NCBI GenBank assembly: GCA_027491035.1
Contig: JAIXWZ010000037.1
Span: forward strand, 1-37,948
Direction: 5' to 3'
Length of the DNA: 37,948 nt
DNA from: Comamonadaceae bacterium
GTDB lineage: Bacteria > Pseudomonadota > Gammaproteobacteria > Burkholderiales > Burkholderiaceae_C
Positions within the stretch are counted from its first letter, which is position 1. Every line of letters begins with the position of its first letter. The position numbers and the translations under genes are program-made. The notes under the pieces were generated by a model that had not been told where the DNA came from, did no database searches, and worked only from the letters and a program-made list of their open reading frames with translations. Positions 13,318-27,949 of this stretch are shown piece by piece.

Positions 13318-13333
13318 TGTAAAGCGCTTGACA
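13318..13333 (+). promoter_or_regulatory. Candidate Crp/Fnr-type operator upstream of the transporter-kynureninase operon
   Basis: TGTAAAGCGCTTGACA is an inverted repeat with 7 of 8 base pairs symmetric, in Crp/Fnr layout (two 5-bp half sites, 6-bp spacer). The right half contains TTGACA (13328-13333), a perfect -35 hexamer, with a weak -10 (TACGCA, 13352-13357) 18 bp later. The repeat begins at the base after the hydrolase stop and lies about 70 bp before the first ATPase gene. The same sequence with 2 of 22 changes recurs upstream of hyuA on the other strand (25754-25769). Confidence 0.6.
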
Positions 13334-13396
13334 CGGCGGCCCTAGGACAAATACGCATGAACTGGGGGCACCCACTGGGTATGCTCTAGCGCTTGC

Positions 13397-14227
13397 ATGC
13401 TGACCCACGGCCCGGGTGTTTGCCCGGCCTTTGTTTTGTTGACTTCAACCCCCGTGTCACCCGCGATTTTGCAGTTGCAGGGCCTGCGCAAGGCCTATGG
13501 TCAGCTGCGAGCGGTCGATGGCGTCGACCTGTCGGTGGCCGCTGGCAGCCTGACGGGCTTGATCGGGCCCAACGGTGCGGGCAAGACCACCACCTTCGAC
13601 CTGATTGCAGGCGCGCAGCGCTGTGACAGTGGGCGCATCTTGTTTCAGGGGCAGCCGATCGAGAACCTGGCGCCCAACGCGATTTTTCGTCGCGGCCTGG
13701 CGCGCACGTTTCAGGTGCCGCGGCCCTTTGCACAGATGACGGTGCTCGAAAACGTCCTCATCGCCCCCCTCAACCAGCTCGGCGAGCGGCTGTATGCCAA
13801 TTGGTGGTGGGCGGGCCGGGTCAGTGCCCAGGAGCGGGCGCTGCAAGAGCGCGCCCGCGAAGTGTTGGAGCTGTGCGCCCTGTCCGACAAGGCCGGTTTG
13901 CTGGCCGGCCAGCTCTCGGGCGGTCAGCAAAAGCTGCTCGAGCTGGCGCGCGTGCTCATGATTGATCCGAAGATGATCTTGCTCGACGAGCCCGCAGCCG
14001 GCGTCAACCCGAGCTTGCTCGAGACCCTGATGGAGCGGGTGCAGTTGCTGCACCGCCGAGGCATCACCTTTTTGCTGATCGAGCACAACATGGACCTGGT
14101 CATGCGGGTGTGCCAGCATGTCATCGTGATGGCCCAGGGGCAGGTGCTGGCTCAGGGAACGCCGCAAGAGGTTCAAGACAACCCTCAGGTGCTCGACGCC
14201 TACCTCGGTCAGGTGCCCCAGTCATGA
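13397..14227 (+). CDS. LivG-type ABC transporter ATP-binding protein (second transporter)
   Basis: ATPase subunit (276 aa as drawn) of a second branched-chain-type importer. Walker A is GPNGAGKTT, the signature is LSGGQQKLLEL, Walker B is MILLDEPAAGV, and LIEHNMDLV contains the H-loop. The ABC domain begins at ILQLQGLRKAYG, so the first ~20 residues are extra. GTG at 13454 is an alternative start to ATG at 13397, and neither has a strong ribosome site. Its stop overlaps the next ATPase gene by 4 bp. It is the first gene of a plus-strand operon that probably runs to the kynureninase gene. Confidence 0.9.
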   Translation: MLTHGPGVCPAFVLLTSTPVSPAILQLQGLRKAYGQLRAVDGVDLSVAAGSLTGLIGPNGAGKTTTFDLIAGAQRCDSGRILFQGQPIENLAPNAIFRRGLARTFQVPRPFAQMTVLENVLIAPLNQLGERLYANWWWAGRVSAQERALQERAREVLELCALSDKAGLLAGQLSGGQQKLLELARVLMIDPKMILLDEPAAGVNPSLLETLMERVQLLHRRGITFLLIEHNMDLVMRVCQHVIVMAQGQVLAQGTPQEVQDNPQVLDAYLGQVPQS

Positions 14228-14991
14228 ACTCGCCGGCCTCGTCCATCCCAAGCCCGCAGGACGCGGCAGTGCTGCGCGTGCAGGATCTGGTTGCCGGCTA
14301 CTTCAAGGGCATGCCGATCGTCAAAGGGGCGAGCTTGCAGGTCGCCGCCGGCGAGCTGGTGGCCATCCTCGGTCCCAACGGTGCGGGCAAAAGCACGCTC
14401 ATGAAGGCCATCGCCGGCCTGGTGACGGCCGAGTCCGGGCAGATTGCCTTGCGCTCGGCCTCGCTGCTGGGTCTGAGCCCCGATCAGATCATGAGGGCCG
14501 GTCTGGGTTTTGTGCCGCAAACCGGCAATGTCTTTGCCACGCTGACCATTCATGAGAATTTGCGCGTCGGTGGCTATTTGCTCGGCGCCGAATTGGCGCA
14601 GCGGCTGGAGCGGGCCTACACCATGTTTCCTGCGCTGGCGGCCAAGCGGCGCGACAAGGCCCGAACCTTGTCGGGCGGACAGCGGCAGATGCTGGCCATT
14701 GCCCGGGCGCTCATGACCGACCCCAGTGTGCTCATGCTCGACGAGCCCTCGGCCGGTTTGGCGCCGATGATGGTGCAAGAGGTGTTTGAGAGCCTGCAAC
14801 GCCTCAGCCGCCAGGGGGTCAGCGTGCTGATGGTGGAGCAAAACGCCAAGGGTGCTTTGCGGCACAGCGACCGCGCATACATCTTGGTCGAGGGGGGCAA
14901 CCACTTGGAGGGGCCGGCCCAAGCCCTGCTCCATGATCCGGCCGTGGGGGCTGCATTTTTGGGCCAGGGCCGTCGTCGGGAGGCCGCATGA
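14224..14991 (+). CDS. LivF-type ABC transporter ATP-binding protein (second transporter)
   Basis: Second ATPase subunit, 255 aa from ATG at 14224, overlapping the previous stop by 4 bp. Walker A is GPNGAGKST, the signature LSGGQRQML, Walker B VLMLDEPSAGL, with the LivF-type MVEQNAKGAL. A longer frame from 14110 lies inside the previous gene and was rejected. The stop overlaps the permease start by 4 bp. The tight coupling supports equal production of all transporter subunits. Confidence 0.92.
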   Translation: MNSPASSIPSPQDAAVLRVQDLVAGYFKGMPIVKGASLQVAAGELVAILGPNGAGKSTLMKAIAGLVTAESGQIALRSASLLGLSPDQIMRAGLGFVPQTGNVFATLTIHENLRVGGYLLGAELAQRLERAYTMFPALAAKRRDKARTLSGGQRQMLAIARALMTDPSVLMLDEPSAGLAPMMVQEVFESLQRLSRQGVSVLMVEQNAKGALRHSDRAYILVEGGNHLEGPAQALLHDPAVGAAFLGQGRRREAA

Positions 14992-15887
14992 TCTTGCAGG
15001 CACTGGCCGACGGCGTGTTCACGGGCGCCATCATTTCCCTGGGGGCCATCGGGCTGTCGCTGACTCTGCAAATCATGCGGTTTGCCAATTTCGCGCATGC
15101 CGAATTCATGACGCTCGGCGGCTATCTTGCGCTGGCCGTCGTGTGGCTGATCGGGCCGGGCTCGCCGACCCTGGGCTTGACGTTTGGCTGGCAGTTGCTG
15201 GTGGCCGCTTTGCTGGCCTCGGCCCTGGCCGGCTTGATGGCCTGGGGCTTGGATTTGTTGGTGTTTCGACCGCTGCGCCGCCAGGGCGCAGCGTCTTTGG
15301 TGCTGGTGTTTGCGGCTTTTGGTGCGGCGCTGGTGCTGCGCCATGTGCTGGTCCTGATCTGGGGGCACGAGTCTTACTTTTATACCCGCGAGCTGCAGAT
15401 GGGCGTGATGATCGTGCCCGGCATCCGCGTGATGCCCGATCAGGTCTTCATCCTCGCGCTGGCCGTTGTGCTCATGCTGGTGCTGCATTTGTTTTTGACG
15501 TTTCACCGCACCGGCATCGCCATGCGGGCGATGGCCGAAAGCCCGGCGCTGTCGCAGGTCTGCGGCATCCGGGTCGACAGCGTGATGCGCACCACCTGGA
15601 TCATCTCGGGCTTCATGGCGGCCATGGCCGGCGTGTTTTCTGCGCTGACGCCCCAGTTGCATCCGGAATTGGGCTCCAACATGCTGCTGTCGGTGTTTGC
15701 CGCGGCAATTTTTGGTGGCGTCGGCAGCCTGCCCGGTGCGGTACTCGGGGGTCTGCTGGTGGGTATTTCGGAGAATCTCTTTTTGCTGGTGGCCGACCCG
15801 GGCTACAAACCGGCCATGCCCTTCTTGCTGCTGCTGGCCGTGCTGTGCTTGCGTCCGCAGGGCTTGCTTGGGGAGCGTTCATCGTGA
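14988..15887 (+). CDS. LivH-type ABC transporter permease (second transporter)
   Basis: Inner-membrane permease of 299 aa with the LivH pattern: an N-terminal GAIISLGAIGLSLTLQIMRF, then FAHAEFMTLGGYLAL, and the coupling segment TGIAMRAMAESPALSQVCG. Multiple hydrophobic helices span the protein. The start overlaps the preceding ATPase stop by 4 bp. It differs clearly from the LivH at 4444-5319, so this is not a recent duplicate of the first transporter. Confidence 0.92.
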   Translation: MILQALADGVFTGAIISLGAIGLSLTLQIMRFANFAHAEFMTLGGYLALAVVWLIGPGSPTLGLTFGWQLLVAALLASALAGLMAWGLDLLVFRPLRRQGAASLVLVFAAFGAALVLRHVLVLIWGHESYFYTRELQMGVMIVPGIRVMPDQVFILALAVVLMLVLHLFLTFHRTGIAMRAMAESPALSQVCGIRVDSVMRTTWIISGFMAAMAGVFSALTPQLHPELGSNMLLSVFAAAIFGGVGSLPGAVLGGLLVGISENLFLLVADPGYKPAMPFLLLLAVLCLRPQGLLGERSS

Positions 15888-15900
15888 GCGGGGTGGACTG

Positions 15901-16848
15901 ATGGCCGGCGTGTTGTCCTACCTGGTGTTCTTTTTGTGCGTGGTGCTGGTGCTGTGCATCCTGACCATGGGCCTGAACCTGCAATGGGGCTTTACCGGCC
16001 TGTTCAACGCCGGGGTGGCCGGCTTTTATGCGATCGGCGGCTACACCCACGCCATCTTGACGGCCGCGCCCAACCCGCAGTTGATGGGCAACTATGGTTT
16101 GCCCTGGATCGTCGGCATCGTGGGCGCTGTGCTGCTGACCGCCTTGGCCGCTGCCGTGATCGGTCTGATCACGATCCGCCTGCGCGGTGACTATCTGGCT
16201 ATCGCCACCTTCGGCATTGGCATCATGATTCAACTGGTCGCGCTCAATCTGGAGCGCTGGACCGGCGGCTCTCAGGGCATCACCCGGATCGCCAAGCCCA
16301 TGGGCGCAGTGTTTGACACGCCCATGGCCTACAACTTGTTTTACCTGGCCTTCCTGATCGCGGTGGTGGCCCTGGTGTATTGGGCGCTCGAGCGGGTTTT
16401 GTCCTCGCCCTGGGGTCGGGTGCTGCGGGCCATCCGTGAAGACGAGGTGGCCGCTGCCTCGCTGGGCAAAAGTGCGGTGTGGTTTCGGCTTCAATCGTTC
16501 GTTTTGGGTTCGAGCCTAATGGGCCTGGCCGGCGCCCTGTACGTGAGCTTTATTGGTTTCGTCAGCCCTTTTGACTTCCTGCCCATCCTGACGTTTCAGG
16601 TCTGGGCCATGCTGATCGTCGGCGGCAGCGGCAACAACCGCGGCGCCCTACTCGGCGCCCTGGTGGTCTGGGGGGTCTGGGCCAGCAGCGGCGTGTTGGT
16701 CTCCAAATGGATTGCGCCGGCCTATGCGGCCCAAGGCGCCGCAATTCAGGTGATTCTGATCGGCCTGGTGCTGGTGCTGATGCTGCTGTTCAAACCGCGG
16801 GGCCTCATAGGGGAGCGTGCGGTTGTGTCAAGACATTTGGTTTGGTAA
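15901..16848 (+). CDS. LivM-type ABC transporter permease (second transporter)
   Basis: Inner-membrane permease of 315 aa from ATG at 15901, 13 bp after the LivH stop. LivM family features are LNLQWGFTGLFNAGVAGFYA, IRLRGDYLAIATFGIG, and the coupling region GRVLRAIREDEVAAASLG. The C-terminus reads FKPRGLIGERAV. A longer upstream frame overlaps livH and was rejected. It forms the channel with the preceding permease. Confidence 0.91.
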   Translation: MAGVLSYLVFFLCVVLVLCILTMGLNLQWGFTGLFNAGVAGFYAIGGYTHAILTAAPNPQLMGNYGLPWIVGIVGAVLLTALAAAVIGLITIRLRGDYLAIATFGIGIMIQLVALNLERWTGGSQGITRIAKPMGAVFDTPMAYNLFYLAFLIAVVALVYWALERVLSSPWGRVLRAIREDEVAAASLGKSAVWFRLQSFVLGSSLMGLAGALYVSFIGFVSPFDFLPILTFQVWAMLIVGGSGNNRGALLGALVVWGVWASSGVLVSKWIAPAYAAQGAAIQVILIGLVLVLMLLFKPRGLIGERAVVSRHLVW

Positions 16849-16883
16849 GCTGATTTTTCAACTCAACGAGAAAAGGACTGTCC

Positions 16884-18146
16884 ATGACTGCCAGAGAATT
16901 TCGAACCTGCTTGGCCGCGCTGTTGCTGTCGGCCGCGTCGCTTCCGGCCGCCTGGGCCCAGGCCACGGCCTGTCCCGTCAAGGTCGGCGGCATCTTGCCC
17001 CTGACCGGCTCCATGGCCCCGATCACCAAGAAAATTGCGCAGGCTGCCGAACTGGCGTTCGAGCATGTCAACCAGGGCGGTGGGGTCAAGGGCTGTCCGG
17101 TGCAATTTATCTTGCGTGATGACCAGGGGCAACCCAGTGTGGGCGTCGATGCCGCCAAATACCTGGTCGAGGTCGAGCGCGTGCAGGCTTTCACCGGCAC
17201 CATCTCCTCGGGTGTGACGGGCCCCATCATTTCTGCCGTGACTGCGCCTTCGAAAGTGGTGCAGATTTCCTGCTGCTCCTCGGCCAGCAACTTCACCGAC
17301 GGTCGCAGCGGCGGGTATTTCTTTCGAACCCTGCCCACCAGCAAGACCCAGGCTTACGCCACGGCCTCCGAGGTCAACCGCCGGGGCATGAAGCGCTTGG
17401 CCATCATTTACGTCAACACCGATTTCGGCACCGACATGCTGCGGTTTTACCGGGGTGCCCACAACAAGCTCGGCGGCGACATCGTGGCCGAGGTGGCCTA
17501 CAACGACAACCAGCCGAGCTACCGCGCCGAAGTCAGCCGGGCGCTGGCTGCCAAACCCGAGTCCTTGCTGCTCATTGGCTTTCCCAAGGACGCGGTGACC
17601 ATCGTTCGCGAGTGGCTGTCTCAGGGCGGCTCCAGAAAGGTGGCGCTCAACAACTCCATGCGCACCATGGACTTCGTCAACGGTGTGGGTGCCCAGTTTG
17701 TTGAGGACTTCTTTGGCATGGACAACGCCCAGGAACCCGGCCCTAGCGTCGATGCGTTCAACGACGCGTTCCAGAAGAAATGGAACGCCGACTCCAAGGG
17801 ACCTGGCGTTCACACGCAGTACGACGCGGTCATGGTGATGGCTTTGGCGATGAACATTGCCAAAGACCTCACCGGCCCGTCGATTCGTGACGCCGTGCGG
17901 CGCGTGCACACCCCCGGCGGCACGCCCGTTGGAACCGGCCCGGCCGAGTTCAAGAAAGCGCTCGAGCTGATCCGTGCGGGCCGCCCGATCAAGTACTCTG
18001 GCGCCACCGGGCCGATCGAGTTCGATGCCAATGGCGATGTCAGCGGCCCTGCGCTGGTCTGGAAGATCAATAACGGCCAGATCGTCACCGATCGCACCAT
18101 CGGCCTGACCGAGATGCAGGCGCTGACCCGTCGGATTGAGAACTGA
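16884..18146 (+). CDS. Periplasmic substrate-binding protein of the second liv-type transporter
   Basis: LivK-like (periplasmic binding protein type I fold) of 420 aa. A signal peptide is visible: basic start, hydrophobic LAALLLSAASL, and probable cleavage after AWA near residue 25. The mature protein starts with KVGGILPLTGSMAPITKKIA, typical of family 5/6 amino acid- and amide-binding proteins. It contains a Cys pair (SCCSS) near residue 132. It lies 35 bp after the LivM gene. The ligand is unknown; the clustered kynureninase, hydantoinase and Rid genes point to a nitrogen-containing aromatic or cyclic amide (inference). Confidence 0.91.
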   Translation: MTAREFRTCLAALLLSAASLPAAWAQATACPVKVGGILPLTGSMAPITKKIAQAAELAFEHVNQGGGVKGCPVQFILRDDQGQPSVGVDAAKYLVEVERVQAFTGTISSGVTGPIISAVTAPSKVVQISCCSSASNFTDGRSGGYFFRTLPTSKTQAYATASEVNRRGMKRLAIIYVNTDFGTDMLRFYRGAHNKLGGDIVAEVAYNDNQPSYRAEVSRALAAKPESLLLIGFPKDAVTIVREWLSQGGSRKVALNNSMRTMDFVNGVGAQFVEDFFGMDNAQEPGPSVDAFNDAFQKKWNADSKGPGVHTQYDAVMVMALAMNIAKDLTGPSIRDAVRRVHTPGGTPVGTGPAEFKKALELIRAGRPIKYSGATGPIEFDANGDVSGPALVWKINNGQIVTDRTIGLTEMQALTRRIEN

Positions 18147-18181
18147 TGGGTTCGTGGGCGAGCGTGCCGGTCATCTGCTGA

Positions 18182-18637
18182 TTGCGCAATGTGACTGAGG
18201 CTGCGCGGGCTCCCGTTCATGTCGCCAGCCTGGTCTGCGCGGTCGAGCCGGCCCGGGCCCTGCGCTTTATGGCCGATGGCCTGGCGCTCGGACGCTGGGC
18301 CCTCGGGTCGATGGAGACGGTGCGCGTGGCACCGGGGCTTTACCGAGGGCGCTCGCTGTTTGACGGCTCGAGCGTTCTGGTGCGGCCCGTCCTTGACCCC
18401 CAGCGGGCCCAGGTGGACTATTGGGTCGGCCACGATCGCGAGCATCTGAGCGCGCGCATCATGGCCAAGGTGCTGCCCCATGCGCAAGGCTGCGTGGTGT
18501 GCCTGATGGCCTGGCGCAGTCCGGACATGTCTGACGCCCGCTGGGCGCGCCTGATCGCCTGCCATGAAGCAGAGATCCACCTCATTCAATCGATCCTCGA
18601 AACACCGCGCCGCTCGCTGCGGCGCTCATCCCAATGA
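18182..18637 (+). CDS. Small SRPBCC-like protein coupled to the kynureninase gene
   Basis: About 150 residues. The arrangement ARALRFMADGLALGRWALG, then PGLYRGRSLFDG, VDYWVG and RWARLIACHEAEI resembles START/SRPBCC (polyketide-cyclase-like) small-molecule-binding proteins, but this is a fold-level impression only. No ATG starts it. TTG at 18182 directly follows an in-frame stop, and GTG at 18191 is an alternative. The stop overlaps the kynureninase ATG by 4 bp, so the two are translationally coupled and may act on the same compound. It lacks a signal peptide. Confidence 0.6.
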   Translation: MRNVTEAARAPVHVASLVCAVEPARALRFMADGLALGRWALGSMETVRVAPGLYRGRSLFDGSSVLVRPVLDPQRAQVDYWVGHDREHLSARIMAKVLPHAQGCVVCLMAWRSPDMSDARWARLIACHEAEIHLIQSILETPRRSLRRSSQ

Positions 18638-19869
18638 TCACTCTGTCCGACTGCCAGGCGCTCGATGCGCAGGACCCCCTGCGCCAGTTGCGGCTCAAAT
18701 TTGCCCAGCCCACCGAGGACACGATTTACCTCGATGGCAATTCGGTCGGCGCCATGCCCGCCGATGCGCCGCAGCGGGTGCAGGAGCTGATGACGCGGGG
18801 CTGGCGCGACGCCCGTCGGCGCGGCTGGAGCCATTTCGACTGGATGGAAAAGCCCTGGCTGCTCGGCGAGGCGGTTGCGCACCTGCTTGGCGCGGGGCCG
18901 CAGGATGTGGTCTTTAGCGACAACACCTCGGTCAATTTGTTCAAGCTGCTGGCCTATGCCTGCAAGCTTGAGCCCAAGCGACCCGTTATCGTGACCGAGC
19001 GTCACAACTTTCCAACCGATGTCTACATCGCGCAGGGCCTGGCCCATCTGCTCGATGGCCGTGTGAGCGTGCGCTTCATTGACCACCCCGATGAGCTGCC
19101 CGCGGCCCTCGGGCCCGATGTCGGCGTGGTCTACCTCAGTCATGTGGACTACCGATCGAGCTACCGCTGGCCGATGCGCCAGACCAATGAGGCCATCCAC
19201 CGCTGCGGCGCGCTGGCGTTCTGGGATCTTTCGCACGCGGCCGGCGCCATCGCGGTCAATCTTGAGGACGATGGCGCCGATTTTGCCGTGGGCTGTGGTT
19301 ACAAATACCTCTGCGGTGGCCCGGGCGCGCCTGCGTGGCTGTATGTTCATCCGCAGCACCAGGAAAAGGATTGGCCGGCCATCGCGGGCTGGATGGGTCA
19401 CCAGGATGTGTTTGCTTTTGCGCCGGACTATGAGCCCTTAACAGGGGTGCGCCGCCACCTGACCGGATCGCCCTCCATCCTGGCCAATCAGGCCATGTCG
19501 GCGGCAGCCGACCTCTGGAAGACCATCGAGCCGGCCGATCTGAACTGGAAGCACCAGTCGCTGTCTGAGTTGTTGGTGCGGCTGCTGCAGCAGCGCTGCA
19601 CCGATCTGGGCGTGGTGGTCACTTCGCCCCTCGATTACGCCCAGCGCGGCGGACATTTGACGTTCAGCCACCCCGGCGCTGGCAGCGTGACCGAGGCCTT
19701 GCTCGCCCACGGCGTGGTGTCCTCGTTTCGCAAACCCGATTCGATCCGCTTTGGACTCTCGCCCATGGCCCTGAGCCATGTCGATTTGTGGAACGCGGTC
19801 GATCGGCTGGTTCATGTGCTGCAAAGCGGTGTCTGGCAAGACAGCCGCTTTGCCAAGGTCTCGGTCTGA
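18634..19869 (+). CDS. kynU: Kynureninase-family PLP enzyme
   Basis: 411 aa, normal kynureninase length. Kynureninase (EC 3.7.1.3) cleaves kynurenine to anthranilate and alanine with PLP. Signature elements are IYLDGNSVG (31-39), HNFPTD (124-129), WDLSHAAGA with Asp198 and His201, and the PLP lysine Lys224 in GYKYLCGGPG, as in authentic kynureninases. The context is not a usual tryptophan operon: there is no kynA, kynB or anthranilate gene in the window. Instead it ends a transporter operon. It may act on kynurenine or on a related gamma-oxo amino acid. It is convergent with the AKR-Rid gene. Confidence 0.87.
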   Translation: MITLSDCQALDAQDPLRQLRLKFAQPTEDTIYLDGNSVGAMPADAPQRVQELMTRGWRDARRRGWSHFDWMEKPWLLGEAVAHLLGAGPQDVVFSDNTSVNLFKLLAYACKLEPKRPVIVTERHNFPTDVYIAQGLAHLLDGRVSVRFIDHPDELPAALGPDVGVVYLSHVDYRSSYRWPMRQTNEAIHRCGALAFWDLSHAAGAIAVNLEDDGADFAVGCGYKYLCGGPGAPAWLYVHPQHQEKDWPAIAGWMGHQDVFAFAPDYEPLTGVRRHLTGSPSILANQAMSAAADLWKTIEPADLNWKHQSLSELLVRLLQQRCTDLGVVVTSPLDYAQRGGHLTFSHPGAGSVTEALLAHGVVSSFRKPDSIRFGLSPMALSHVDLWNAVDRLVHVLQSGVWQDSRFAKVSV

Positions 19870-19875
19870 GCTTGT

Positions 19876-19891
19876 GCGGCCGGCGGGCCGC
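19876..19891. terminator. Hairpin between convergent genes
   Basis: GCGGCC (19876-19881) and GGCCGC (19886-19891) form a 6-bp GC-only stem with a 4-nt loop in the 29-bp gap between the convergent kynureninase and AKR-Rid stops. It could stop transcription from both sides. No T-run follows, so it is not a classical intrinsic terminator. Confidence 0.3.
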
Positions 19892-19898
19892 GGCGGGC

Positions 19899-21746
19899 TC
19901 AGCGCCGGCGCGCAGTGACCTCGATTTCCACCAGGCACTGGGCCAAGGCCAGCGGCGTGCACAAGGTGGTGTTGCTCGGTCGGGCCGGACCGAAGCGCTC
20001 GCGGATCACCTGGCTGACCGCCTCCACATCGTCTCGGTGGGCCAGGTGCACCACCACCCGGACCACATCGAGCAAGCTCATCTGCGCTTGCTGCAGCGCC
20101 GCTTCGATGGTGTCGATCGCGCGCTGCGCCTGCCCCAGAGCAGTCGAGGGCCACAGGCCGGTTGCAAAGTCGACGCCCACCGTGCCCGAGACGAAGGCCC
20201 AGTCGCCCTCGACGACCGCGCGTGAGTAGCCTGCCATCGCCTCATACGGTGAGCCGCTGCTGACAAACTGCCGGGGCGCCGGCTCGACTTCGGCCTCGGC
20301 TTCGATTTCGACTTCGTAGTCCCCGACCAGGTTGGCCACGGCCAGCAAGGTGTTGGCCGGGCGGACGTCGGCAAACACCCGGCCGTGGACTTCGGTCGGG
20401 CCTTGCCAGGCGGCCACATCTTTCAGATAGACCCGGGTGCGCACCACATCGCTCAGGCCCGCGCCGAGCGCTTGCAGGCTGGCCGCGATCTTGTCGAGGA
20501 TGTAGACCGTCTGCGCCTGCGCGTTGCCGGGGGCCATCACGGTGCCGTCGCCATGGGTGGCAGTGGTGCCGCTGACCAGCACGCGCGAGCCCTGCCGGAC
20601 AGCCCTTGAGTAGCCACCAATGCCTTCCCAGCGACTGCCGGTGGACACCTGGCTGCGTGAAGGCCGTGTGCTCACTGCCTGAGCCTGGTAGGGCCGCTTG
20701 AGTTGGTCGAGGTGGTGGCTGAGGTCCCCCGAGGCCGTCAGGAAGGGGGGCTTGCGGTATTCGTCCCCACAGTCGCCGGGCGGATGCCGCGTCTGTGCAA
20801 AGGCCGCCTCCAGGCGTTCATGGTCTTGCGCATCGAGCGCAAAGCCAAACACGCTCAGGTTGCTGCTGCGGTGCTCGCTTTGCCCCAGACGCGCACCGAC
20901 GATGGCCGCGCCCACCGCAGGCTGCTCGAGCACCCAGCGCAATGAGACTGCTGCGATCGACACCCGGTGTTTAGTGGCGATCGCGTGGGCCGCCTGCAAG
21001 ACCCCTTGGAAGGCCTGCCAGCCGCCAATGGCACCGATGAAGCGGTGGTACTTGGACTTGCTCCAGTCGGCAACGGCGGCCGGCTCGCTCTGGCCCAGCC
21101 AGCGCTCGCTCAAAAAGCCGCCGGCCAGCGTGCCATAGGCCAGCAGCTTGATGCCTTCGGCCTGGCACAGCTGGCTCATGCGCCCGGCCGCGCGCCGGTC
21201 GAGCAGCGAGAACGACACCTGGTTGGTTGCAATCGAGATGCCGTGGCGGCACAGCAGGTGCAAGTGATCGGTGTCAAAGTTGGTCAAGCCCAGATGATGG
21301 ATCTGGCCGCGCTCGCGCAGCTCCATCAGGTGTGCCATGGCATCGAGATAGCCCGGGTGGGTGTAATCCCACCAATGGAACTGCATCAGGTCGATGCGCT
21401 CGACACCGAGTCGGCTGCGCCGCTCATCGATCCCCGCCTGCACGCGCGCGGCCGTCATCTCATCGGGCTCGGGGCACCATTTGGTGAAGGCGTGTGCGGA
21501 GCTGGCGCGCCATTGGCGCAGAAACTGGCCCGTGATCAGCTCGGCGCTGCCGTAGTGGTCGGCCATGTCGAAGGCATCGAAGCCGGCCTGGGCATAGTCG
21601 GCCAGGTTTTGGGCCGCTGGCCCGATCTCGAGCAGGCGCCCATCGCGCTCCATGTCTGCCACCTGCCAAAGGCCAGTGACCAGTCTGGGGACGTTCAGTC
21701 CTGGGGCCAGATCGATGCGGTGGGGGCGTTGGGTTGACTCAGGCAT
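19899..21746 (-). CDS. Aldo/keto reductase fused to two RidA (YjgF/YER057c/UK114) domains
   Basis: A 615-residue three-part protein. Residues 1-340 are an aldo/keto reductase with the catalytic tetrad Asp60, Tyr65, Lys89 and His124. Residues ~365-487 and ~495-613 are two Rid domains, each beginning with a GYSRAV...VSGT block and ending in an EIE strand. At the position of E. coli RidA Arg105 both have Asn (RPAN465, RPSN592), so the imine-deaminase arginine is absent, as in the Rid4-Rid7 groups. One continuous frame without a stop links the parts. It lies 36 bp after hyuB and ends the minus-strand operon. It is paralogous to the AKR at 26574-27605 (both have LLDRR-AG and YGTLAGGFL). The substrate is unknown. 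Confidence 0.88.
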   Translation of the reverse strand: MPESTQRPHRIDLAPGLNVPRLVTGLWQVADMERDGRLLEIGPAAQNLADYAQAGFDAFDMADHYGSAELITGQFLRQWRASSAHAFTKWCPEPDEMTAARVQAGIDERRSRLGVERIDLMQFHWWDYTHPGYLDAMAHLMELRERGQIHHLGLTNFDTDHLHLLCRHGISIATNQVSFSLLDRRAAGRMSQLCQAEGIKLLAYGTLAGGFLSERWLGQSEPAAVADWSKSKYHRFIGAIGGWQAFQGVLQAAHAIATKHRVSIAAVSLRWVLEQPAVGAAIVGARLGQSEHRSSNLSVFGFALDAQDHERLEAAFAQTRHPPGDCGDEYRKPPFLTASGDLSHHLDQLKRPYQAQAVSTRPSRSQVSTGSRWEGIGGYSRAVRQGSRVLVSGTTATHGDGTVMAPGNAQAQTVYILDKIAASLQALGAGLSDVVRTRVYLKDVAAWQGPTEVHGRVFADVRPANTLLAVANLVGDYEVEIEAEAEVEPAPRQFVSSGSPYEAMAGYSRAVVEGDWAFVSGTVGVDFATGLWPSTALGQAQRAIDTIEAALQQAQMSLLDVVRVVVHLAHRDDVEAVSQVIRERFGPARPSNTTLCTPLALAQCLVEIEVTARRR

Positions 21747-21782
21747 GGAAGGGGTGGTCAGGTCGGTTCATCGATTGTGCCC

Positions 21783-23453
21783 TCAGCGCGTCTCCAGGCC
21801 TTCGGCCCGGTCGAGCGCCAGGGCCTGGGGATCGCGATCTTCGGCCTTGCCATAGCCGCCGCCGCCGGGCAATTGGAGCAACAGGCGGCAACCGGGTGGC
21901 ACCTCATGCAGGCCCTTGTCGAGAATCACGGTGCCGTTGGAGAGGTGACAAGAGCCGGGCCTGCCGTCCTGGCCGCCGGCCCGGCCGCGAGCCGGATGGA
22001 TGCGCCGATCAAAGGTGGCCGCTGAAATGCGAAAGCTCTCGCCCTCGCGGTGACCGATTTCAATCACGCTGCCCAGCCCACCGCGAAACTGGCCTTGCCC
22101 CGCGCTGGCCGGCAGGTATTCGCGCCGATGAAACAAAAGCGGTGATTCGGCCTCGGTCACCTCGATCGGAATGGTTCCCACGCCGCTGGGGAAGGCCGTG
22201 CAGGACAGCCCATCCTTGCTGGGCCGCGCGCCCATACCGCCGATGCCCAGGCTCATGGTTTGGTAGGGCCCCTGGGCCTGCTCGCCCGACAGGGCCAGCA
22301 CCCAGATGCTGCCGGCCCCCTCGGCGCTGACCAGACCTTTGCAGGGCTGCTGCAGACAGCCAAACATCAGGTCGGGCAGCATTTGCCCGACCACGTGCCG
22401 GGCGGTGACCGGGGCCGGTGGCAAGGGATGGACGATAGAGCCAGGCTCTGCCCTGACCTCAATGGCCGACAGCGAGCCAGCGTTGTTCGGGATGTCCGGC
22501 GCGATGACGCATTTGATGCCGAAGACCGTGTAGGCATCGGTGTAGCACTTGGGTGAATTGATGCCCGAACGCGACGCGGGCGATGAGCCGGCGTAGTCGA
22601 TGCACATCAGCTCGCCGGCCACCTGCAGCGTGGCCACCAGATCGACCGCCGGGCCGTTGCCATCGATGCGCATCTCGTGGCGCCATTGCCCATCGGGCAA
22701 GGCCGCAATCACCTCGCGCATGGCCTTGGCCGAGGTGTCGATGATGTAATCGGACAGCCGCTCCATGTCATCCAGGCCAAACTCCTGCAGCAAGGCCTGC
22801 AAGCGCTGCATGGCCGCCGCGTTGCACGACACCAGCGACATCAGATCCCCGCGCGCTTGCAGAGGCTCTCGCACATTGCGCTCGAGCAGGGCAAAAAACG
22901 TGGCGTTGGGCTGACCGGCCTCAAACAGCTTGAGATGGGGCACCCACAGCCCCTCCTCAAACACCGAGCGCGCCTCCGCGGTAAAGCCACGCCCGCCGAT
23001 GTCGATCACGTGGCAGGTTGATGCCATCAGGGCCACCGAGCGGCCCTGGTGAAAAACCGGCGAGACGACGACAAAGTCGAACAGGTGACCGGTGCCCATC
23101 CAGGGGTCGTTGGTCACCAGCACATCGCCAGGCTTCAAGTCATCGAGCGCAAAACGCTCAAGAAAGTGCCCGACGGCCAAGGCCATGGTGTTGACGTGGC
23201 CCGGCGTGCCGGTCACAGCCTGCGCCATCATGCGTCCGCGGCGGTCGTAGACGCCCACCGACAAATCCCCCGCCTCTCGGGTGACCGCGCCAAAAGCCGT
23301 CTTGAGCAAGACCTGGGCACCCTCTTCAACCACCGAGATCAAGCGGTTCCACATCACCTGCTGCATCACCCGCTCGCGCATGGTCGGCTCGGCTGGGCTT
23401 GGGCCTGGTGGGGCCGCGCGATTGCTTTGGGGGGAGGCGGTGGGTGTGTGCAT
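21783..23453 (-). CDS. hyuB: Hydantoinase B/oxoprolinase family protein
   Basis: 556 aa, matching the HyuB subunit of ATP-dependent N-methylhydantoinase, 5-oxoprolinase-type and acetophenone-carboxylase-type enzymes. Recognisable blocks are EGAQVLLKTAFGAVTREAGD, TPGHVNTM, PGDVLVTNDPWMGTGHLFDF, the mid-protein YAGSSPAS and NSPKCYTDAY, and a C-terminal PGGGGYG. It starts 32 bp after the hyuA stop and should form a complex with HyuA. Together they would use ATP to open a cyclic amide or to carboxylate a ketone; which one cannot be told from the sequence. Confidence 0.92.
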   Translation of the reverse strand: MHTPTASPQSNRAAPPGPSPAEPTMRERVMQQVMWNRLISVVEEGAQVLLKTAFGAVTREAGDLSVGVYDRRGRMMAQAVTGTPGHVNTMALAVGHFLERFALDDLKPGDVLVTNDPWMGTGHLFDFVVVSPVFHQGRSVALMASTCHVIDIGGRGFTAEARSVFEEGLWVPHLKLFEAGQPNATFFALLERNVREPLQARGDLMSLVSCNAAAMQRLQALLQEFGLDDMERLSDYIIDTSAKAMREVIAALPDGQWRHEMRIDGNGPAVDLVATLQVAGELMCIDYAGSSPASRSGINSPKCYTDAYTVFGIKCVIAPDIPNNAGSLSAIEVRAEPGSIVHPLPPAPVTARHVVGQMLPDLMFGCLQQPCKGLVSAEGAGSIWVLALSGEQAQGPYQTMSLGIGGMGARPSKDGLSCTAFPSGVGTIPIEVTEAESPLLFHRREYLPASAGQGQFRGGLGSVIEIGHREGESFRISAATFDRRIHPARGRAGGQDGRPGSCHLSNGTVILDKGLHEVPPGCRLLLQLPGGGGYGKAEDRDPQALALDRAEGLETR

Positions 23454-23485
23454 GGACAGATGGACGCCGTGGTCGAGGTTTCAGG

Positions 23486-25582
23486 TCAAGCCGCTGGCGG
23501 GGCGGTGGAGTCGATCAGGTGCAGGTGGCCCAGCCCGTCGAGACTGGCCCGCCAGCCTTGCGGCACCACGGTGGTGGTCTGCTCTTCGGCCACGAGCGCT
23601 GGCCCATCGAGCCAGGCGCCGGCGGCAAGCGCTGTGCGCAGATACACCGGGTGCATCAGCCACTGGCCGGTGTGCGCATCGAAGACCTGGCGCTGCGCCT
23701 GCGCTTGTGCCGGCGTGGGCTCGGGCGCATGGGGCCGTGCAGGCAGCGCCGGCGCCTGGGCGCTGGCCGAGACCGTCCAGGTGAGGAACTCCAGCGCAAC
23801 CCCTGCAATGCGCATCCCGTATTGGCGCTCGTACCGGCTCTCGAAGGCCTCACGCAATTGCTCGATCGCCCGTTCATCGAGCGGGCCTTCGGGCAAGGCA
23901 ATCGCCAATTCATGGCCCTGCCCCACGTAACGCACATCGACCCAGCGCCGCACCTCGATGCGCGCTGCGGGATCGCCCTGGCGCACGATCTGGGTGGACT
24001 GCTGCTCCAAGTCTGCGAGCATGCCATTGAGCCGGGGCAAGTCCAGCGCAGCCTCCTGCATGCGCAGGCTGCGAACCATCTCGAAGGCCACGGGCGAAAG
24101 CAGAAAACCCACCGCCGAGCCCACGCCCGCGTCCTTGGGCACGACCACCTCACGGATGTCGAGCCGGCGGGCCATGGCTGCGGCGTGCAGCGGCGCCGCG
24201 CCGCCGAAGGCGATCAGCGTACATTGGGCCAGGGTCTTGCCGCGCTCGATCGCATGCACCCGTGCGGCGTTGGCCATGTTTTCCTCGACGATCTCGAGGA
24301 TGCCGCCGGCCGCCCAGGTCAGGTCGAGCGATTGCACCTGGGCCACTTGCTCGGCAATGGCTTGCTGGGCAGCGGGCAGATCGAGCTGGAAGCGACCGGC
24401 GGCAAAGCGCTCGGGGTCGAGCCGTCCGAGCACCAGTTGTGCGTCGGTGACGGTGGCGAGCTGGCCGCCGCGGCCAAAGCACACCGGGCCGGGCAGGGCG
24501 GCGGCACTGTCTGGGCCCACCACAATCCGACCGATGCGGTCAACGCGCCCAATGGAGCCGCCGCCTGCGCCGATTTCGACCATTTCAGTGACGGGAATGC
24601 GCACCGGCCAGCCGCTGCCTTTGAGGTTTTTCCAGGCCCGCGCCACTTCAAATCGGCGCGACTGTTCGACCTGGCCGTCGGTGATGAAGCAAATCTTGGC
24701 GGTGGTGCCGCCCATGTCAAACGACAGGGCCTGCTTGAGCCCGAGCTGATTTGAAAGCGATGCCGACAAGGTGGCACCGCCGGCCGGCCCCGATTCGACC
24801 AGCCGGATGGGAAAGCGCATGGCCGTCTGCAGCGTGGTCAGCCCGCCGCCCGAGGTCACAAGAAAGAGCGGACAGCGCAGGCCCAGGGCTTGCAGGCGCT
24901 CTTGCAGGGCCTGCAGGTAGCGCGACATCAGCGGCTGCACATAGGCATTGGCCACGGTGGTCGAAAAGCGCTCAAACTCGCGGATCTCCGGGCAAACCTC
25001 GCTGGAGTTGCACACCGATGCCGCAGGCCACAGCGCCCGCACCCGATCGGCAACGGCGCGCTCGTGCTCAGGGTTGGCATAGGCGTGGAGCAGGCCCACG
25101 GCCACGGCTTCTATCGCCTGGCTTTGCAGGCTGGCAATGGCGCGGTCGACGTCGTCCATGCACAGCGGCTCGTAGATCTTGCCCTGGGCGGTCATCCGGC
25201 CCTTGACACCGATGCGGGCCTGCCGGGGCACCAGGGAAGCGGGCTTTTCAAGGTCCAGGTCGTAGTGGTCAAAGCGTTTTTCGTCCCCCATGGCCAGCAC
25301 ATCGCGAAAACCGGCGTTGGTGATAAAGCCCGTGCGCGCGCCCTTGCGCTCGATCAAGGCGTTGGTTGCCAAGGTGGTGCCGTGGACCAGCAGATCCACG
25401 TCCTGGGGCGCTGCACCGACTTGCGCCAGCACCTGCAAAATGCCCTCGACCATGGCTTGCTCAGGCGCTTGGGGCGTCGTCAGCAGCTTGGTGCTGCTTT
25501 GCTGGCTGCCGCGCTGCAGCACCACGTCGGTGAAGGTGCCGCCGATATCGACCGCAATGCGCAAGGCGTTTGACGGGTTCAT
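23486..25582 (-). CDS. hyuA: Hydantoinase A/oxoprolinase family protein
   Basis: 698 aa from ATG at 25582; a 10-residue upstream extension was rejected because MNPSNALRIAVDIGGTF is the canonical start. It is the ATPase subunit: DIGGTFTDVVL (12-22) is the first phosphate-binding loop of the hydantoinase A N-terminal region, and later SFDMGGTTAKICFI and IGAGGGSIGRVD are the second ASKHA-type nucleotide site. GGAAPLHAAAMAR is also typical. It lies directly upstream of hyuB. A 221-bp gap separates it from the Crp/Fnr gene, and the inverted repeat at 25754-25769 lies in that gap, giving hyuA its own control region. Confidence 0.93.
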   Translation of the reverse strand: MNPSNALRIAVDIGGTFTDVVLQRGSQQSSTKLLTTPQAPEQAMVEGILQVLAQVGAAPQDVDLLVHGTTLATNALIERKGARTGFITNAGFRDVLAMGDEKRFDHYDLDLEKPASLVPRQARIGVKGRMTAQGKIYEPLCMDDVDRAIASLQSQAIEAVAVGLLHAYANPEHERAVADRVRALWPAASVCNSSEVCPEIREFERFSTTVANAYVQPLMSRYLQALQERLQALGLRCPLFLVTSGGGLTTLQTAMRFPIRLVESGPAGGATLSASLSNQLGLKQALSFDMGGTTAKICFITDGQVEQSRRFEVARAWKNLKGSGWPVRIPVTEMVEIGAGGGSIGRVDRIGRIVVGPDSAAALPGPVCFGRGGQLATVTDAQLVLGRLDPERFAAGRFQLDLPAAQQAIAEQVAQVQSLDLTWAAGGILEIVEENMANAARVHAIERGKTLAQCTLIAFGGAAPLHAAAMARRLDIREVVVPKDAGVGSAVGFLLSPVAFEMVRSLRMQEAALDLPRLNGMLADLEQQSTQIVRQGDPAARIEVRRWVDVRYVGQGHELAIALPEGPLDERAIEQLREAFESRYERQYGMRIAGVALEFLTWTVSASAQAPALPARPHAPEPTPAQAQAQRQVFDAHTGQWLMHPVYLRTALAAGAWLDGPALVAEEQTTTVVPQGWRASLDGLGHLHLIDSTAPPAA

Positions 25583-25753
25583 CGAACTGCTCCGGCTGCC
25601 ATCGGATCGCACGCAGGGCCCGGGCGCAAATTCTGGCGCTGCCTGGCCTCTGGCCGGGCAGGCCTACAGCAAAACAGGGGTCGGCGGGGCGTCATGGTGC
25701 CGGTGTTCAAGCAGTCAATGGCCACAGCTTAGTGACCGCCTGGCCGACTGCCG

Positions 25754-25769
25754 TGTCAATCGCTTTACA
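25754..25769 (-). promoter_or_regulatory. Candidate Crp/Fnr-type operator upstream of hyuA
   Basis: Read on the minus strand this is TGTAAAGCGATTGACA, followed by CGGCAG. It matches the site at 13318 in 20 of 22 bases over the longer stretch. It again embeds TTGACA, a perfect -35 hexamer, but no good -10 follows at 17-18 bp, which suggests an activated promoter. The distance to the hyuA start is about 170 bp. The adjacent upstream gene is a Crp/Fnr regulator, the natural candidate to bind it. Confidence 0.6.
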
Positions 25770-25803: not shown

Positions 25804-26559
25804 TCAGGGCAATCCCGACCCAATGCCTTGGGCCTCCAGGGCCAGCAAGTCGGGCCTGCAGATGACCACATGGCGCTGGTGGCGGGCAATCACCCCTTGG
25901 CGCTCGAGGCGCGAAAAAATATGCGACACGCTCACCCGCGACAGGCCGCAGATATTGCCCATTTCCTGCTGTGTGAAGCTGATGTTGATGCGGCTGCCCA
26001 GCGGTGTTGGCGTGCCGTGTGCGTGCAGCAATCCCAGCAGGTGATGGCACACGCGCCGACCGGCCGAGTTGTGGGCTTGCAATTGGATGTGTTGCAGCAA
26101 GACGCCAAAGCGCCGGCTGCTCAGTAGCCGGTGCTGGTGGGCCAACTCAGGCTGTGCCTGCAGCGCCTCCAGAAAGTGGCTGGCAGGCATGGCCCGCAAT
26201 CGAACCTCTGAGGAGGCCAGGGCACTGACCCCGTAATGGGCCGATGCGGGCAAGCTGCAGTCGCCCAGCAGACCGTTGGCGCCCAAAATCATCAGGTGCC
26301 GCTCGCGGCCGTCGATGCCAAAGGACGACAGGCGAACCCGGCCTTCCACGATCACGTACACGGTCTGCGCCGGCTGCCCCTCGTGGAACAGGGTCTGGTC
26401 TTTTTGCAGGCTCAGCGCCCGCGCATCTTCGAGCAAGGGCTGCCACGAAAACTCCAGGTCGGTCAGCCAGGCCGAGACCCGCTCGGCGCCGCCTGGCGTG
26501 GTCCATTGGGCTGCCTGCCCCGGTGTGGCCGCCAGCGGCGCGCCGTCCTTGCGCATCAT
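25804..26559 (-). CDS. Crp/Fnr family transcriptional regulator
   Basis: 251 aa. Residues ~35-150 form a cyclic-nucleotide-binding-like beta roll (LFHEGQPAQTVYVIVEGRVRL). The HTH lies at ~195-217 (FTQQEMGNICGLSRVSVSHI). There is no N-terminal cysteine cluster as in FNR, so an oxygen-sensing Fe-S centre is unlikely, and the effector is unknown. In the recognition helix Ser207 and Arg208 match CRP, but CRP's Glu181 and Arg185 are replaced by Val209 and His213, so its site should differ from TGTGA. It is 14 bp downstream of the AKR gene, probably co-transcribed with it, and likely controls hyuAB and the transporter operon (inference). Confidence 0.88.
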   Translation of the reverse strand: MMRKDGAPLAATPGQAAQWTTPGGAERVSAWLTDLEFSWQPLLEDARALSLQKDQTLFHEGQPAQTVYVIVEGRVRLSSFGIDGRERHLMILGANGLLGDCSLPASAHYGVSALASSEVRLRAMPASHFLEALQAQPELAHQHRLLSSRRFGVLLQHIQLQAHNSAGRRVCHHLLGLLHAHGTPTPLGSRINISFTQQEMGNICGLSRVSVSHIFSRLERQGVIARHQRHVVICRPDLLALEAQGIGSGLP

Positions 26560-26573
26560 GCGGGCTGGCCCAC

Positions 26574-27605
26574 TCAGGCCTTGCCTTCGTTGAGGTTGTA
26601 TTTCATGATGCGGCCGTGCCGGCCTTGGCGATCTCGCTCGAGATCAAACACATCGCCTTCGAGCAGGGTGCTGCGGCGCAGCACGTCGGCCAGGCGATCG
26701 TGATCCTGCGGCTCGAGCTTGAACGCGAACACCTCGAGCATCTGTGGCAGGTGTACGGCATAGCGCGCCCCGACGATGGCCGCTGCAACATGCTGCTGCT
26801 CAAGCACCCAGCGGGTGGCCACGCTTGAGAGCGCAACGCCGTGGCGCTGGGCAATGTGCTGCAAGGCACCGAGCAACTGCTGAAACAAGTCCCAGCCGCC
26901 AAAGTCGTCGATCACCAATTTGTACTTGATCAGCGAGCGGTTGCTCAGGCTGCCCAAGGCGGGCTCGGGCGCGCCCAACCAGGCCTGAGTGAGAAAGCCT
27001 CCGGCAAGGGTGCCGTAGCACAGCAGTTGCAGGCCCGAGCGCTCGCACAGCCGAGACATCGCACCGGCAGGTCGCCGGTCGAGCAGCGAGTACTGCACCT
27101 GCATGCTCACCAGGTCAACACCGGCGTCAAGCAGTTGCTGCGTCTGCTCGGTGTTGAAATTGGTGGCGCCAATCAAACGCAGCGTGCCTTCGCGCTGCAG
27201 GGCCGTCAGATGCGTGGCCGTTTGCACCATTCCCGCCACGCCATAGTCCCACCAGTGGTATTGAACCAGGTCCAGAACGCTGGCATGGAGTCGCTGACGC
27301 GAGCGCTCATGGATCTCACGCACATAGCCCTCATTGACCCGATGCAGGTGGGCCAGATCGGGCACGAATTTGGTGTGGACCTGCAAGCCCGGGTCGCGCT
27401 GGCGGTAGCGCCCGATCAACTCTTCAACGCCGGTGTAGATGTCGGCGCAGTCAAAGGTATTTAAGCCCGCCTTCGCGAAGTGGGCCATGTCGTCGATCGC
27501 GCGCTCGGCCTGCACCTCGCCATGGTCGCCGGCGAGCTGCCAGCCGCCCCGGATCAGGCGCGCAATCTTGTAGCCTGGGGCCAGGTTGATGGTCTCGACG
27601 CTCAT
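26574..27605 (-). CDS. Aldo/keto reductase (paralogue of the AKR-Rid fusion's reductase part)
   Basis: 343 aa from ATG at 27605. An NAD(P)H-dependent reductase of TIM-barrel fold with the tetrad Asp52, Tyr57, Lys79 and His117. It shares LAPG, QYSLLDRRPAG, LLCYGTLAGGFL and the VQYHWWDY active-site region with residues 1-340 of the 615-aa fusion, so the two arose from a common ancestor, but this copy has no Rid domains. The start overlaps the upstream TIGR04076-type gene by 4 bp, and the Crp/Fnr gene follows 14 bp after. The substrate is unknown. Confidence 0.87.
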   Translation of the reverse strand: MSVETINLAPGYKIARLIRGGWQLAGDHGEVQAERAIDDMAHFAKAGLNTFDCADIYTGVEELIGRYRQRDPGLQVHTKFVPDLAHLHRVNEGYVREIHERSRQRLHASVLDLVQYHWWDYGVAGMVQTATHLTALQREGTLRLIGATNFNTEQTQQLLDAGVDLVSMQVQYSLLDRRPAGAMSRLCERSGLQLLCYGTLAGGFLTQAWLGAPEPALGSLSNRSLIKYKLVIDDFGGWDLFQQLLGALQHIAQRHGVALSSVATRWVLEQQHVAAAIVGARYAVHLPQMLEVFAFKLEPQDHDRLADVLRRSTLLEGDVFDLERDRQGRHGRIMKYNLNEGKA

Positions 27606-27949
27606 GGCTGGCCCGCGGTCAAGGGCACGGCCGTCGTCTGGCTGTGAAGAAACCGGCGCGGCTGCAGCCGCGTGATGCGAAAGCGGGTGGGGCAATTGGG
27701 GTCCGGGCAGGCCACCTCGCTGTCGGTGCTCATCCAGTCATGGGCGTGGCTGGCACGCTGCTTGGCAGGCAAGAGCGGCAGCAGCGCTGCCAGCGAATAC
27801 ATGGAAAAGCCTTGGCCCGGCGGGAAGTGCAGCATTTCGCCGCGCACTTCAAATGAATCGCCCAGCCGCGCGCCACAGTAAATGGCGGCATCGGCCGGGC
27901 CCACCACCTCAACGCGCAGATCGAAAATCTCGAAGCTCTCGTCGCTCAT
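27602..27949 (-). CDS. TIGR04076-type small protein
   Basis: 115 aa from ATG at 27949. The pattern of a Cys followed by GDSFEV (Cys25, 30-35), then a PPGQGFSMYSLAALLPLLPAK block, DWMSTD and CPDPNCPTRFRITR (Cys81, Cys86) fits the TIGR04076 family of small proteins of unknown function. The conserved cysteines could bind metal, but this is a guess. The 4-bp overlap with the aldo/keto reductase gene suggests translational coupling and a shared role. It is first in the minus-strand operon. A 145-bp gap upstream, to the tctC stop, should hold the promoter; nothing convincing was seen there. Confidence 0.7.
   Translation of the reverse strand: MSDESFEIFDLRVEVVGPADAAIYCGARLGDSFEVRGEMLHFPPGQGFSMYSLAALLPLLPAKQRASHAHDWMSTDSEVACPDPNCPTRFRITRLQPRRFLHSQTTAVPLTAGQP

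What the first reader, a model, noticed from the sequence alone, without database searches (positions are those of the whole stretch)
13318..25769. Near-identical inverted-repeat operator before both opposed operons, with a Crp/Fnr regulator gene beside one copy
13318-13339 (plus) and the complement of 25748-25769 share 20 of 22 bases. The first 16 form an inverted repeat of Crp/Fnr geometry (TGTAAAGC/GCTTGACA at the first site) that overlaps a TTGACA hexamer. One copy starts the transporter-SRPBCC-kynureninase operon; the other precedes hyuA-hyuB-AKR/Rid. The regulator at 25804-26559 lies beside the second copy. This predicts one regulon with a non-canonical site, in line with the altered recognition helix (Val209, His213). 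The palindrome also resembles LacI-type operators, but no LacI regulator is in the window.
Basis: partly seen in the sequence, partly recalled or inferred. Interest (0 to 1): 0.75.

Follow-up and report, generated by a model that had tools for sequence, protein, structure and literature searches.

The report
Crp-type regulator with paired operators
Two matching DNA switches sit in front of two neighbouring gene groups that probably break down an unknown compound, and comparison with related bacteria shows that both switches very probably belong to the regulator gene beside one of them, a little-known cousin of the well-studied Crp family.

Summary
In detail: 20 of 22 bases agree. The conserved core is a 16-mer, TGTAAA-N4-TTGACA, found exactly at only these two places in the 3.67 Mb genome. 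Three relatives in which both promoters can be seen keep both sites (0-2 mismatches). Of 15 distinct homologues of the Crp/Fnr gene (38-100% identity), 14 have a site with at most 3 mismatches within 450 bp; the fifteenth has an exact copy 1.6 kb away, before hyuA. At 17 of 19 non-transporter sites TANGNT lies 21-22 nt downstream, class II activator geometry. A site-plus-box pattern hits 4 of 349 family genomes, all four with the regulator (partly circular). A LacI reading is disfavoured. The site resembles that of cyanobacterial NtcA (GTAN8TAC near -41.5; passages). Against: one relative has sites but no regulator found, two have the transporter cluster without a site. Best reading: a Crp/Fnr subfamily not found described in our searches, activating hyuA; its mode at the transporter promoter (about -66.5) is unsettled. 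Binding, effector and substrate are untested.

The parts
13318..13333 (+). Operator copy 1 (TGTAAAGCGCTTGACA) before the transporter operon
   Evidence: conserved in L018, L019, L020 with 0, 1 and 2 mismatches
13341..13360 (+). Second conserved block CCTAGGAyAAAyACGCATGA between operator and -10 box, centred near -41.5; meaning unknown
   Evidence: 18 of 20 columns identical in the 4 sequences aligned
13380..13385 (+). Probable -10 box TATGCT of the transporter operon, 46 nt after the operator
   Evidence: spacing 46 in 4 of 4; TATGCTC invariant
13397..14227 (+). livG-like ABC ATPase, first gene of the transporter operon (the true start may lie downstream)
14260..18146 (+). livF-, livH-, livM-like genes and periplasmic binding protein
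18634..19869 (+). kynureninase homologue
   Evidence: TIGR01814 225.5 bits, below its cut-off of 246.4; 1qz9 E 3e-106
19899..21746 (-). aldo-keto reductase / Rid fusion, last gene of the hyu operon
21783..23453 (-). hyuB (hydantoinase B; nearest NCBIfam model caprolactamase beta, far below its cut-off)
23486..25612 (-). hyuA (hydantoinase A; nearest NCBIfam model caprolactamase alpha, below its cut-off); likely ATG at 25582
   Evidence: start from sequence and the alignment
25726..25731 (-). -10 box TAAGCT of the hyuA promoter, 22 nt after the operator
   Evidence: TAnGCT invariant in 8 of 8; spacing
25754..25769 (-). Operator copy 2 (TGTAAAGCGATTGACA), centred about -42 of the predicted hyuA start
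   Evidence: conserved in 7 related loci from 5 genomes
25804..26559 (-). Crp/Fnr-family regulator (251 aa), recognition helix SRVSVSHIF
26574..27695 (-). aldo-keto reductase upstream of the regulator, 14 bp apart, probably co-transcribed
   Evidence: order kept in L017, L133, L134, L019, L135, L020

Best explanation
The two repeats are operators of the Crp/Fnr-family protein encoded at 25804-26559. On sensing an unknown cue (probably a pathway compound, not cAMP), its dimer binds TGTAAA-N4-TTGACA. At the hyuA promoter it sits about 42 bp upstream of the predicted start and activates by class II contact with RNA polymerase, in place of a -35 element. At the transporter promoter it binds near -66.5 and helps to turn on import and the first catabolic steps, perhaps with a second factor at the conserved block 13341-13360. 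The result is a small local regulon. Shown computationally: the sites, their conservation, their tie to the regulator gene, and the spacing to the -10 box. Inferred: binding, activation, effector.
For: (1) 14 of 15 distinct homologue loci carry a <=3-mismatch site within 450 bp of the regulator (6 exact, 8 <=1, 12 <=2). For 500 half-shuffled palindromes the mean was 0.22 loci at <=3 and 0.03 at <=2 (maxima 10 and 4). (2) hyuA promoters: in 8 aligned sequences (6 genomes) nearly all invariant columns belong to the 16-mer, TAnGCT and a GGxTTxC stretch. (3) TANGNT lies 21-22 nt after the site in 17 of 19 non-transporter sites; L119 has TAGACT at 21, L120 has none. For the eight sites beside distant homologues both orientations were looked at before one was chosen. 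(4) Site-plus-box pattern: 4 of 349 family genomes, all regulator-positive (4 of 6 positive, 0 of 343 negative; Fisher 2.5e-8, partly circular). The one place not seen before, in G261, lies before a two-cupin gene 77% identical to the one downstream of the L115 site; that hit alone gives p 0.009. (5) Recognition helix: Val at the Glu181 position goes with A instead of G at half-site position 4, as in CprK (passages read, PMC2610375); NtcA also has Val there (alignment) and reads GTAN8TAC at about -41.5 with a TAN3T box (passages read, PMC3898017). (6) Sites stand in front of hyuA, two-cupin, kynureninase-like, transporter, M20-type and DUF2817 genes, mostly beside this regulator.
Against: No binding or expression data. 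G787 (L018) keeps both sites but no homologue was found in that genome at E<=1e-15 (its completeness is not given). In G324 and G382 (and L021, apparently the same contig as in G324) the transporter promoter lacks any <=3-mismatch site although a 56% homologue exists elsewhere in the genome. L022 and L023 likewise have the transporter genes without a site while their genomes hold a 60-61% homologue. G162, G177, G791 and G792 have the regulator but no exact site-plus-box match. The proximal half-site is TGTCAA when read outward, whose C does not fit the CprK pyrimidine rule. The transporter spacing (-66.5) is not a usual class I position (recalled: -61.5, -71.5). L119's site points away from any obvious target, and L120's has no -10 box.
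Confidence: 0.86

Rival explanations
1. The palindromes are operators of a LacI-family repressor encoded elsewhere; the Crp/Fnr gene is a bystander.
For: AAGCGCTT cores are typical of LacI-family operators (recalled); the own genome has 3 LacI-family matches over the cut-off on other contigs.
Against: No listed LacI match lies on a contig carrying the cluster or the regulator in the fragmented genomes, nor within 100 kb of the regulator in G174, G162 and G177. G789 has no LacI match over the cut-off yet carries exact sites at three hyuA promoters (assembly may be incomplete). Sites follow the Crp/Fnr gene into different gene contexts, and the 21-22 nt spacing is that of an activator.
Confidence: 0.04
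2. A different Crp/Fnr paralogue of the cell (a global Crp or Fnr) uses the sites.
For: Crp/Fnr proteins share site geometry; the first look in the own genome listed 14 candidates, of which 6 were scored.
Against: The site lacks the G of TGTGA/TTGAT that goes with Glu181/Arg185 proteins (in part recalled). The site-plus-box pattern is absent from 343 of 343 family genomes that lack this homologue; that such genomes keep other Crp/Fnr proteins is general knowledge, not tested here.
Confidence: 0.06
3. The protein binds the sites but represses, leaving when a substrate appears.
For: Catabolic operons are often repressed; TTGACA overlaps the place where a -35 element could lie; NtcA itself represses some genes (passage).
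Against: A repressed promoter would be expected to keep a -35 box 16-18 nt before the -10; none is found for hyuA, and the centre at about -42 is the class II activation position.
Confidence: 0.1
4. Chance similarity or a repeat without function.
For: 58 places in the genome match with up to 3 mismatches, against 19 for the reversed pattern.
Against: Only 2 exact places, both before operons, conserved in relatives while the spacers diverge; shuffled-pattern control.
Confidence: 0.01

Closest known systems
NtcA (cyanobacterial nitrogen regulator, Crp/Fnr family)
   Same: Best PDB and NCBIfam sequence match; Val at the Glu181 position; site GTAN8TAC centred about -41.5 with a TAN3T -10 box (passages read, PMC3898017); 18 of 19 non-transporter sites here have TAN3T at 21-22 nt.
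   Different: Scores 58.3 bits against the NtcA cut-off of 244.95; lacks the second Arg of the NtcA recognition helix; 20 of 23 sites have TTGACA-type (G at position 13), not TTTACA-type, proximal halves; local catabolic regulon in betaproteobacteria, not global nitrogen control.
CprK (halorespiration regulator)
   Same: Crp/Fnr protein tied to use of organic compounds, Val in the recognition helix reading A in place of G (passages read, PMC2610375).
   Different: Site TTAAT-N4-ATTAA; weak sequence similarity (2h6b E 6.9e-5); effector here unknown.
E. coli CRP
   Same: Same two domains by Pfam, 16-bp dyad, class II geometry.
   Different: Base-contact residues Glu181 and Arg185 replaced; of the cAMP-contact residues 71, 72, 82, 83, 127, 128 only Gly71 is kept (72 is a Glu-to-Asp change) (residue list from passages of PMC6603298); 49.3 bits against a cut-off of 266.

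Membership tests
Crp/Fnr superfamily | cNMP-binding-like domain plus Crp-type HTH | tested here: met
   PF00027 56.9 bits, PF13545 59.1 bits, PF00325 30.1 bits, all over cut-off
CRP (cAMP-dependent) | cAMP-contact residues and NCBIfam equivalog cut-off | tested here: not met
   5 of 6 listed residues replaced, one conservatively; 49.3 of 266 bits
FNR | NCBIfam cut-off; cysteine cluster for the Fe-S centre | tested here: not met
   33.6 of 228 bits; no Cys in the first 100 residues
NtcA | NCBIfam TIGR03697 equivalog cut-off | tested here: not met
   58.3 of 244.95 bits
NtcA-type promoter (works like) | GTAN8TAC-like box centred near -41.5 with a TAN3T -10 box | tested here: inconclusive
   hyuA promoter: GTAN8GAC (one half GAC, not TAC), TAAGCT at 22 nt; geometry fits, but start sites were not measured
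Class II Crp-dependent promoter at the transporter operon | operator centred near -41.5 | tested here: not met
   46 nt to TATGCT in 4 of 4, about -66.5
LacI-operator system | LacI-family gene linked to the sites | tested here: not met
Regulon of the protein at 25804-26559 | direct binding | not testable with these tools
   needs gel shift or footprint

The most novel reading that the evidence does not exclude
A previously unnamed Crp/Fnr subfamily of Comamonadaceae-like betaproteobacteria, with recognition helix SRVSV[SA]x and a substrate-sensing (non-cAMP) N-domain, has independently arrived at an NtcA-like operator and class II promoter. It travels with a variable catabolic module (kynureninase-like, Rid/AKR, HyuAB or two-cupin genes, transporter), so that one regulator and its 16-bp code define a family of still unassigned degradation pathways.
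Probability: 0.55. Interest if true: 0.6.

Novelty: new member of a known kind. Interest (0 to 1): 0.45.

Why it matters
It gives an unassigned regulator a DNA code precise enough to look for its targets in other genomes (site plus spacing hit only regulator-bearing genomes among 349). It links several uncharacterised catabolic genes into one regulon, which is a handle for finding the substrate. It also adds a natural case for how changes at the Glu181/Arg185 positions re-tune Crp/Fnr specificity.

Tried and rejected
LacI reading: rejected. TTGACA as a real -35 box: rejected on spacing. The full 22-bp identity as the functional unit: rejected, because bases 17-22 vary in relatives. Regulator on plasmids: no tblastn match at E<=1e-20 in 72,556 plasmid records. 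Regulator across the order: only the own genome among 399 at E<=1e-25. AlphaFold model of the regulator (alignment of 4): mean pLDDT 57.8, most of the HTH below 50, not used and not searched. Substrate from the binding protein: PDB relatives are generic branched-chain amino-acid-type binding proteins, not informative. The two-cupin protein matches only a hypothetical protein and, weakly, quercetin dioxygenase.

Papers: searches found none; 28 and 29 used 'Crp Fnr' with a space, which may miss the form with a slash. One search (FNR family + kynureninase) listed 3; of the RedB paper 12 of 21 passages were shown, the kynureninase one not among them, and none bore on this subfamily. One search listed 8; PMC6449761 (aromatic regulation in betaproteobacteria) holds no term beginning with Crp, Fnr or kynuren. 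Searches gave listings; passages of PMC3898017, PMC2633013, PMC6603298 and PMC2610375 were seen. No paper was read whole. So 'not described' means not found in these searches of an open-access library.

Rows dropped or not examined: L130 (G790) has the same position and score as L098 (G324) and was counted once; L021 likewise repeats the G324 contig. Of the 80 loci, only L017-L025 (9 of 80) were scanned for sites; L026-L096 were only compared for gene content. In the own-genome scan the 52 three-mismatch places were not examined.
Full report
OBSERVATION. The two stretches are as described: 20 of 22 bases agree. The window lies in an unnamed 3.67 Mb, 242-contig genome; the best hit of its fusion protein among named records is a Comamonadaceae metagenome-assembled genome (92%). 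TGTMAAKCGMTTKACA without mismatch occurs at 2 places in that genome, both in this window. No place has 1 mismatch; four have 2, and all four overlap mechanical open reading frames. With up to 3 mismatches there are 58 places against 19 for the reversed control pattern; the three-mismatch places were not inspected. A 20/22 inverted match is not rare in itself in this window: one search counted 70 overlapping start-pairs, and most of the 40 printed lie between paralogous transporter genes. The strength of the finding therefore rests on place and conservation, not on the identity figure.

GENES. Copy 1 begins directly after the stop codon of an alpha/beta-hydrolase gene and precedes a branched-chain-type ABC transporter, a small protein and a kynureninase homologue. 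Copy 2 precedes hyuA, hyuB and an aldo-keto reductase/Rid fusion on the other strand. Between copy 2 and a further aldo-keto reductase gene lies the Crp/Fnr gene, transcribed towards hyuA.

CONSERVATION. The fusion protein brought in 80 loci from the genome collection. The first nine (L017-L025) were scanned for sites, the other 71 were not. Of the nine, L017, L018, L019 and L020 keep an exact site before hyuA, and L018, L019 and L020 a site before the transporter, with 0, 1 and 2 mismatches. In L017 the contig ends before the transporter. The other five (L021-L025) show none with <=3 mismatches. L024 is a 4-kb contig that starts inside hyuA; its genome G793 has an exact site beside the regulator on another contig (L133). 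In the aligned hyuA promoters of 8 sequences from 6 genomes the invariant columns are essentially TGTAAA-CG-TTGACA, TA-GCT and a short GGxTTxC stretch upstream, while the spacer diverges.

THE SITE FOLLOWS THE REGULATOR. Homologues of the regulator were found in 7 of 399 family genomes (own included, E<=1e-25), in 1 of 399 order genomes (the own one) and in 7 of 9 genomes of the cluster loci (E<=1e-15). One is seen twice, which leaves 15 distinct genes of 38-100% identity. 14 of 15 have a site with <=3 mismatches within 450 bp of the gene (6 exact, 8 <=1, 12 <=2). With 500 artificial palindromes made by shuffling the half-site, the mean was 0.22 loci at <=3 mismatches and the maximum 10; at <=2 the mean was 0.03 and the maximum 4. 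The fifteenth (L134) has an exact site directly before hyuA, separated from the regulator by 1.6 kb. In the more distant homologues the genes behind the site differ: a two-cupin protein (L115, L116, L136, L137), a DUF2817 protein (L115), an M20 peptidase-type protein (L116), a transporter binding protein (L117) and a kynureninase-like protein (L118). The site and its spacing persist all the same.

PROMOTER GEOMETRY. Of 23 collected sites, 19 lie outside the transporter promoter. 17 of these 19 have TANGNT 21 or 22 nt after the site; L119 has TAGACT at 21 nt and L120 has none. For the eight sites beside distant homologues both orientations were inspected first. The operator centre thus lies at about -41.5 or -42.5 of the predicted start, the class II activator position. 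The pattern TGTAARNNNNYTKACAN{20,22}TANGNT was then run over 349 family genomes without regard to place: 5 places in 4 genomes (G000, G174, G261, G324), every one a regulator-bearing genome (6 of the 349 bear it; G162 and G177 gave no hit), and 0 of 343 others. The reversed pattern gave 3 places. Fisher's test gives 2.5e-8, but the pattern was written from loci that include sites of three of these genomes; leaving them out, the one unseen place gives p 0.009. That place, in G261 (whose other, box-less site L120 had been seen), lies before a two-cupin gene 77% identical to the target in L115. Among 14 genomes with the regulator or the cluster, 10 hold the pattern. The four transporter sites differ: 46 nt to TATGCT in 4 of 4, centre about -66.5, with a strongly conserved non-palindromic block between, itself centred near -41.5. 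A second factor there is possible; this is unexplained.

THE PROTEIN. It passes the Crp/Fnr domain models but fails the cut-offs of NtcA, CRP, FNR and FixK. In 15 homologues the position of CRP Arg180 is always Arg, the position of Glu181 is Val (14) or Met (1), and the position of Arg185 is His, Tyr, Gln, Asn or Thr, never Arg. The contact roles of these residues in CRP are recalled; passages read on CprK say that Val at the FNR Glu209 position goes with a pyrimidine opposite, that is A in place of G in the half-site (PMC2610375). The distal half-site TGTAAA fits; the proximal one (TGTCAA read outward) does not fit that rule. NtcA is the nearest solved relative, and its promoters have GTAN8TAC near -41.5 with TAN3T (PMC3898017, passages). 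Five of six cAMP-contact residues listed in PMC6603298 (passage) are replaced, one of them conservatively, so cAMP is an unlikely effector. A pathway compound is my guess, by analogy with CprK.

AGAINST. G787 keeps both sites without a detectable regulator (an incomplete assembly is possible). G324 and G382 have the transporter-hydrolase-fusion cluster without a site, although a 56% homologue sits elsewhere in the genome; L022 and L023 have transporter genes without a site, with a 60-61% homologue elsewhere. Single exact sites occur in three genomes without the regulator: two lie just behind a malic-enzyme gene in one genus, one lies before a ferritin-like gene (gene names from reading the translations, recalled). 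No experiment was possible.

LACI. All 17 genomes searched have some LacI-family match (16 over the cut-off), but no listed match lies on a cluster or regulator contig of the fragmented genomes or within 100 kb of the regulator on the large contigs, and G789, with three regulator copies and exact sites at three hyuA promoters, has none over the cut-off.

VERDICT. The kind of system (a local Crp/Fnr regulon with class II architecture) is known. The subfamily, its operator and its targets were not found described in the papers searched.

Noticed in passing
13341-13360: Block CCTAGGAyAAAyACGCATGA in the transporter promoter, 18 of 20 columns identical in the 4 sequences aligned, not palindromic, centred near -41.5: perhaps the site of a second regulator.
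   Followed up: partly
19899-21746: Aldo-keto reductase joined to Rid domain sequence (two Rid stretches by HMMER) in one 615-aa protein; relatives at 57% identity or more occur in many Rhizobiales records with a different gene neighbourhood.
   Followed up: partly
L134:9577-11187: About 1.6 kb between regulator and operator in one of three cluster copies of genome G789, where other copies have under 100 bp; the operator stays with hyuA, not with the regulator. One 208-aa ORF there has no Pfam match.
   Followed up: partly
L115:5769-6893, L116:9101-10240, L136:9626-10732, L138:4611-5735: A two-cupin protein of about 370 aa is the most common target behind this operator beside more distant homologues; function unassigned.
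   Followed up: partly
5482-5640 and 5729-5760: Direct repeats in the window (108 bp apart, and a 19-bp period) among the first 40 of 183 direct pairs printed.
   Followed up: no
1718-5310: A second set of branched-chain-type transporter genes on the minus strand, paralogous to the one at 13397-16848 (tblastn).
   Followed up: no
L122:5137-5152 and L123:4861-4876: Exact 16-mer sites just behind a malic-enzyme-like gene in two genomes of one genus that lack the regulator.
   Followed up: partly
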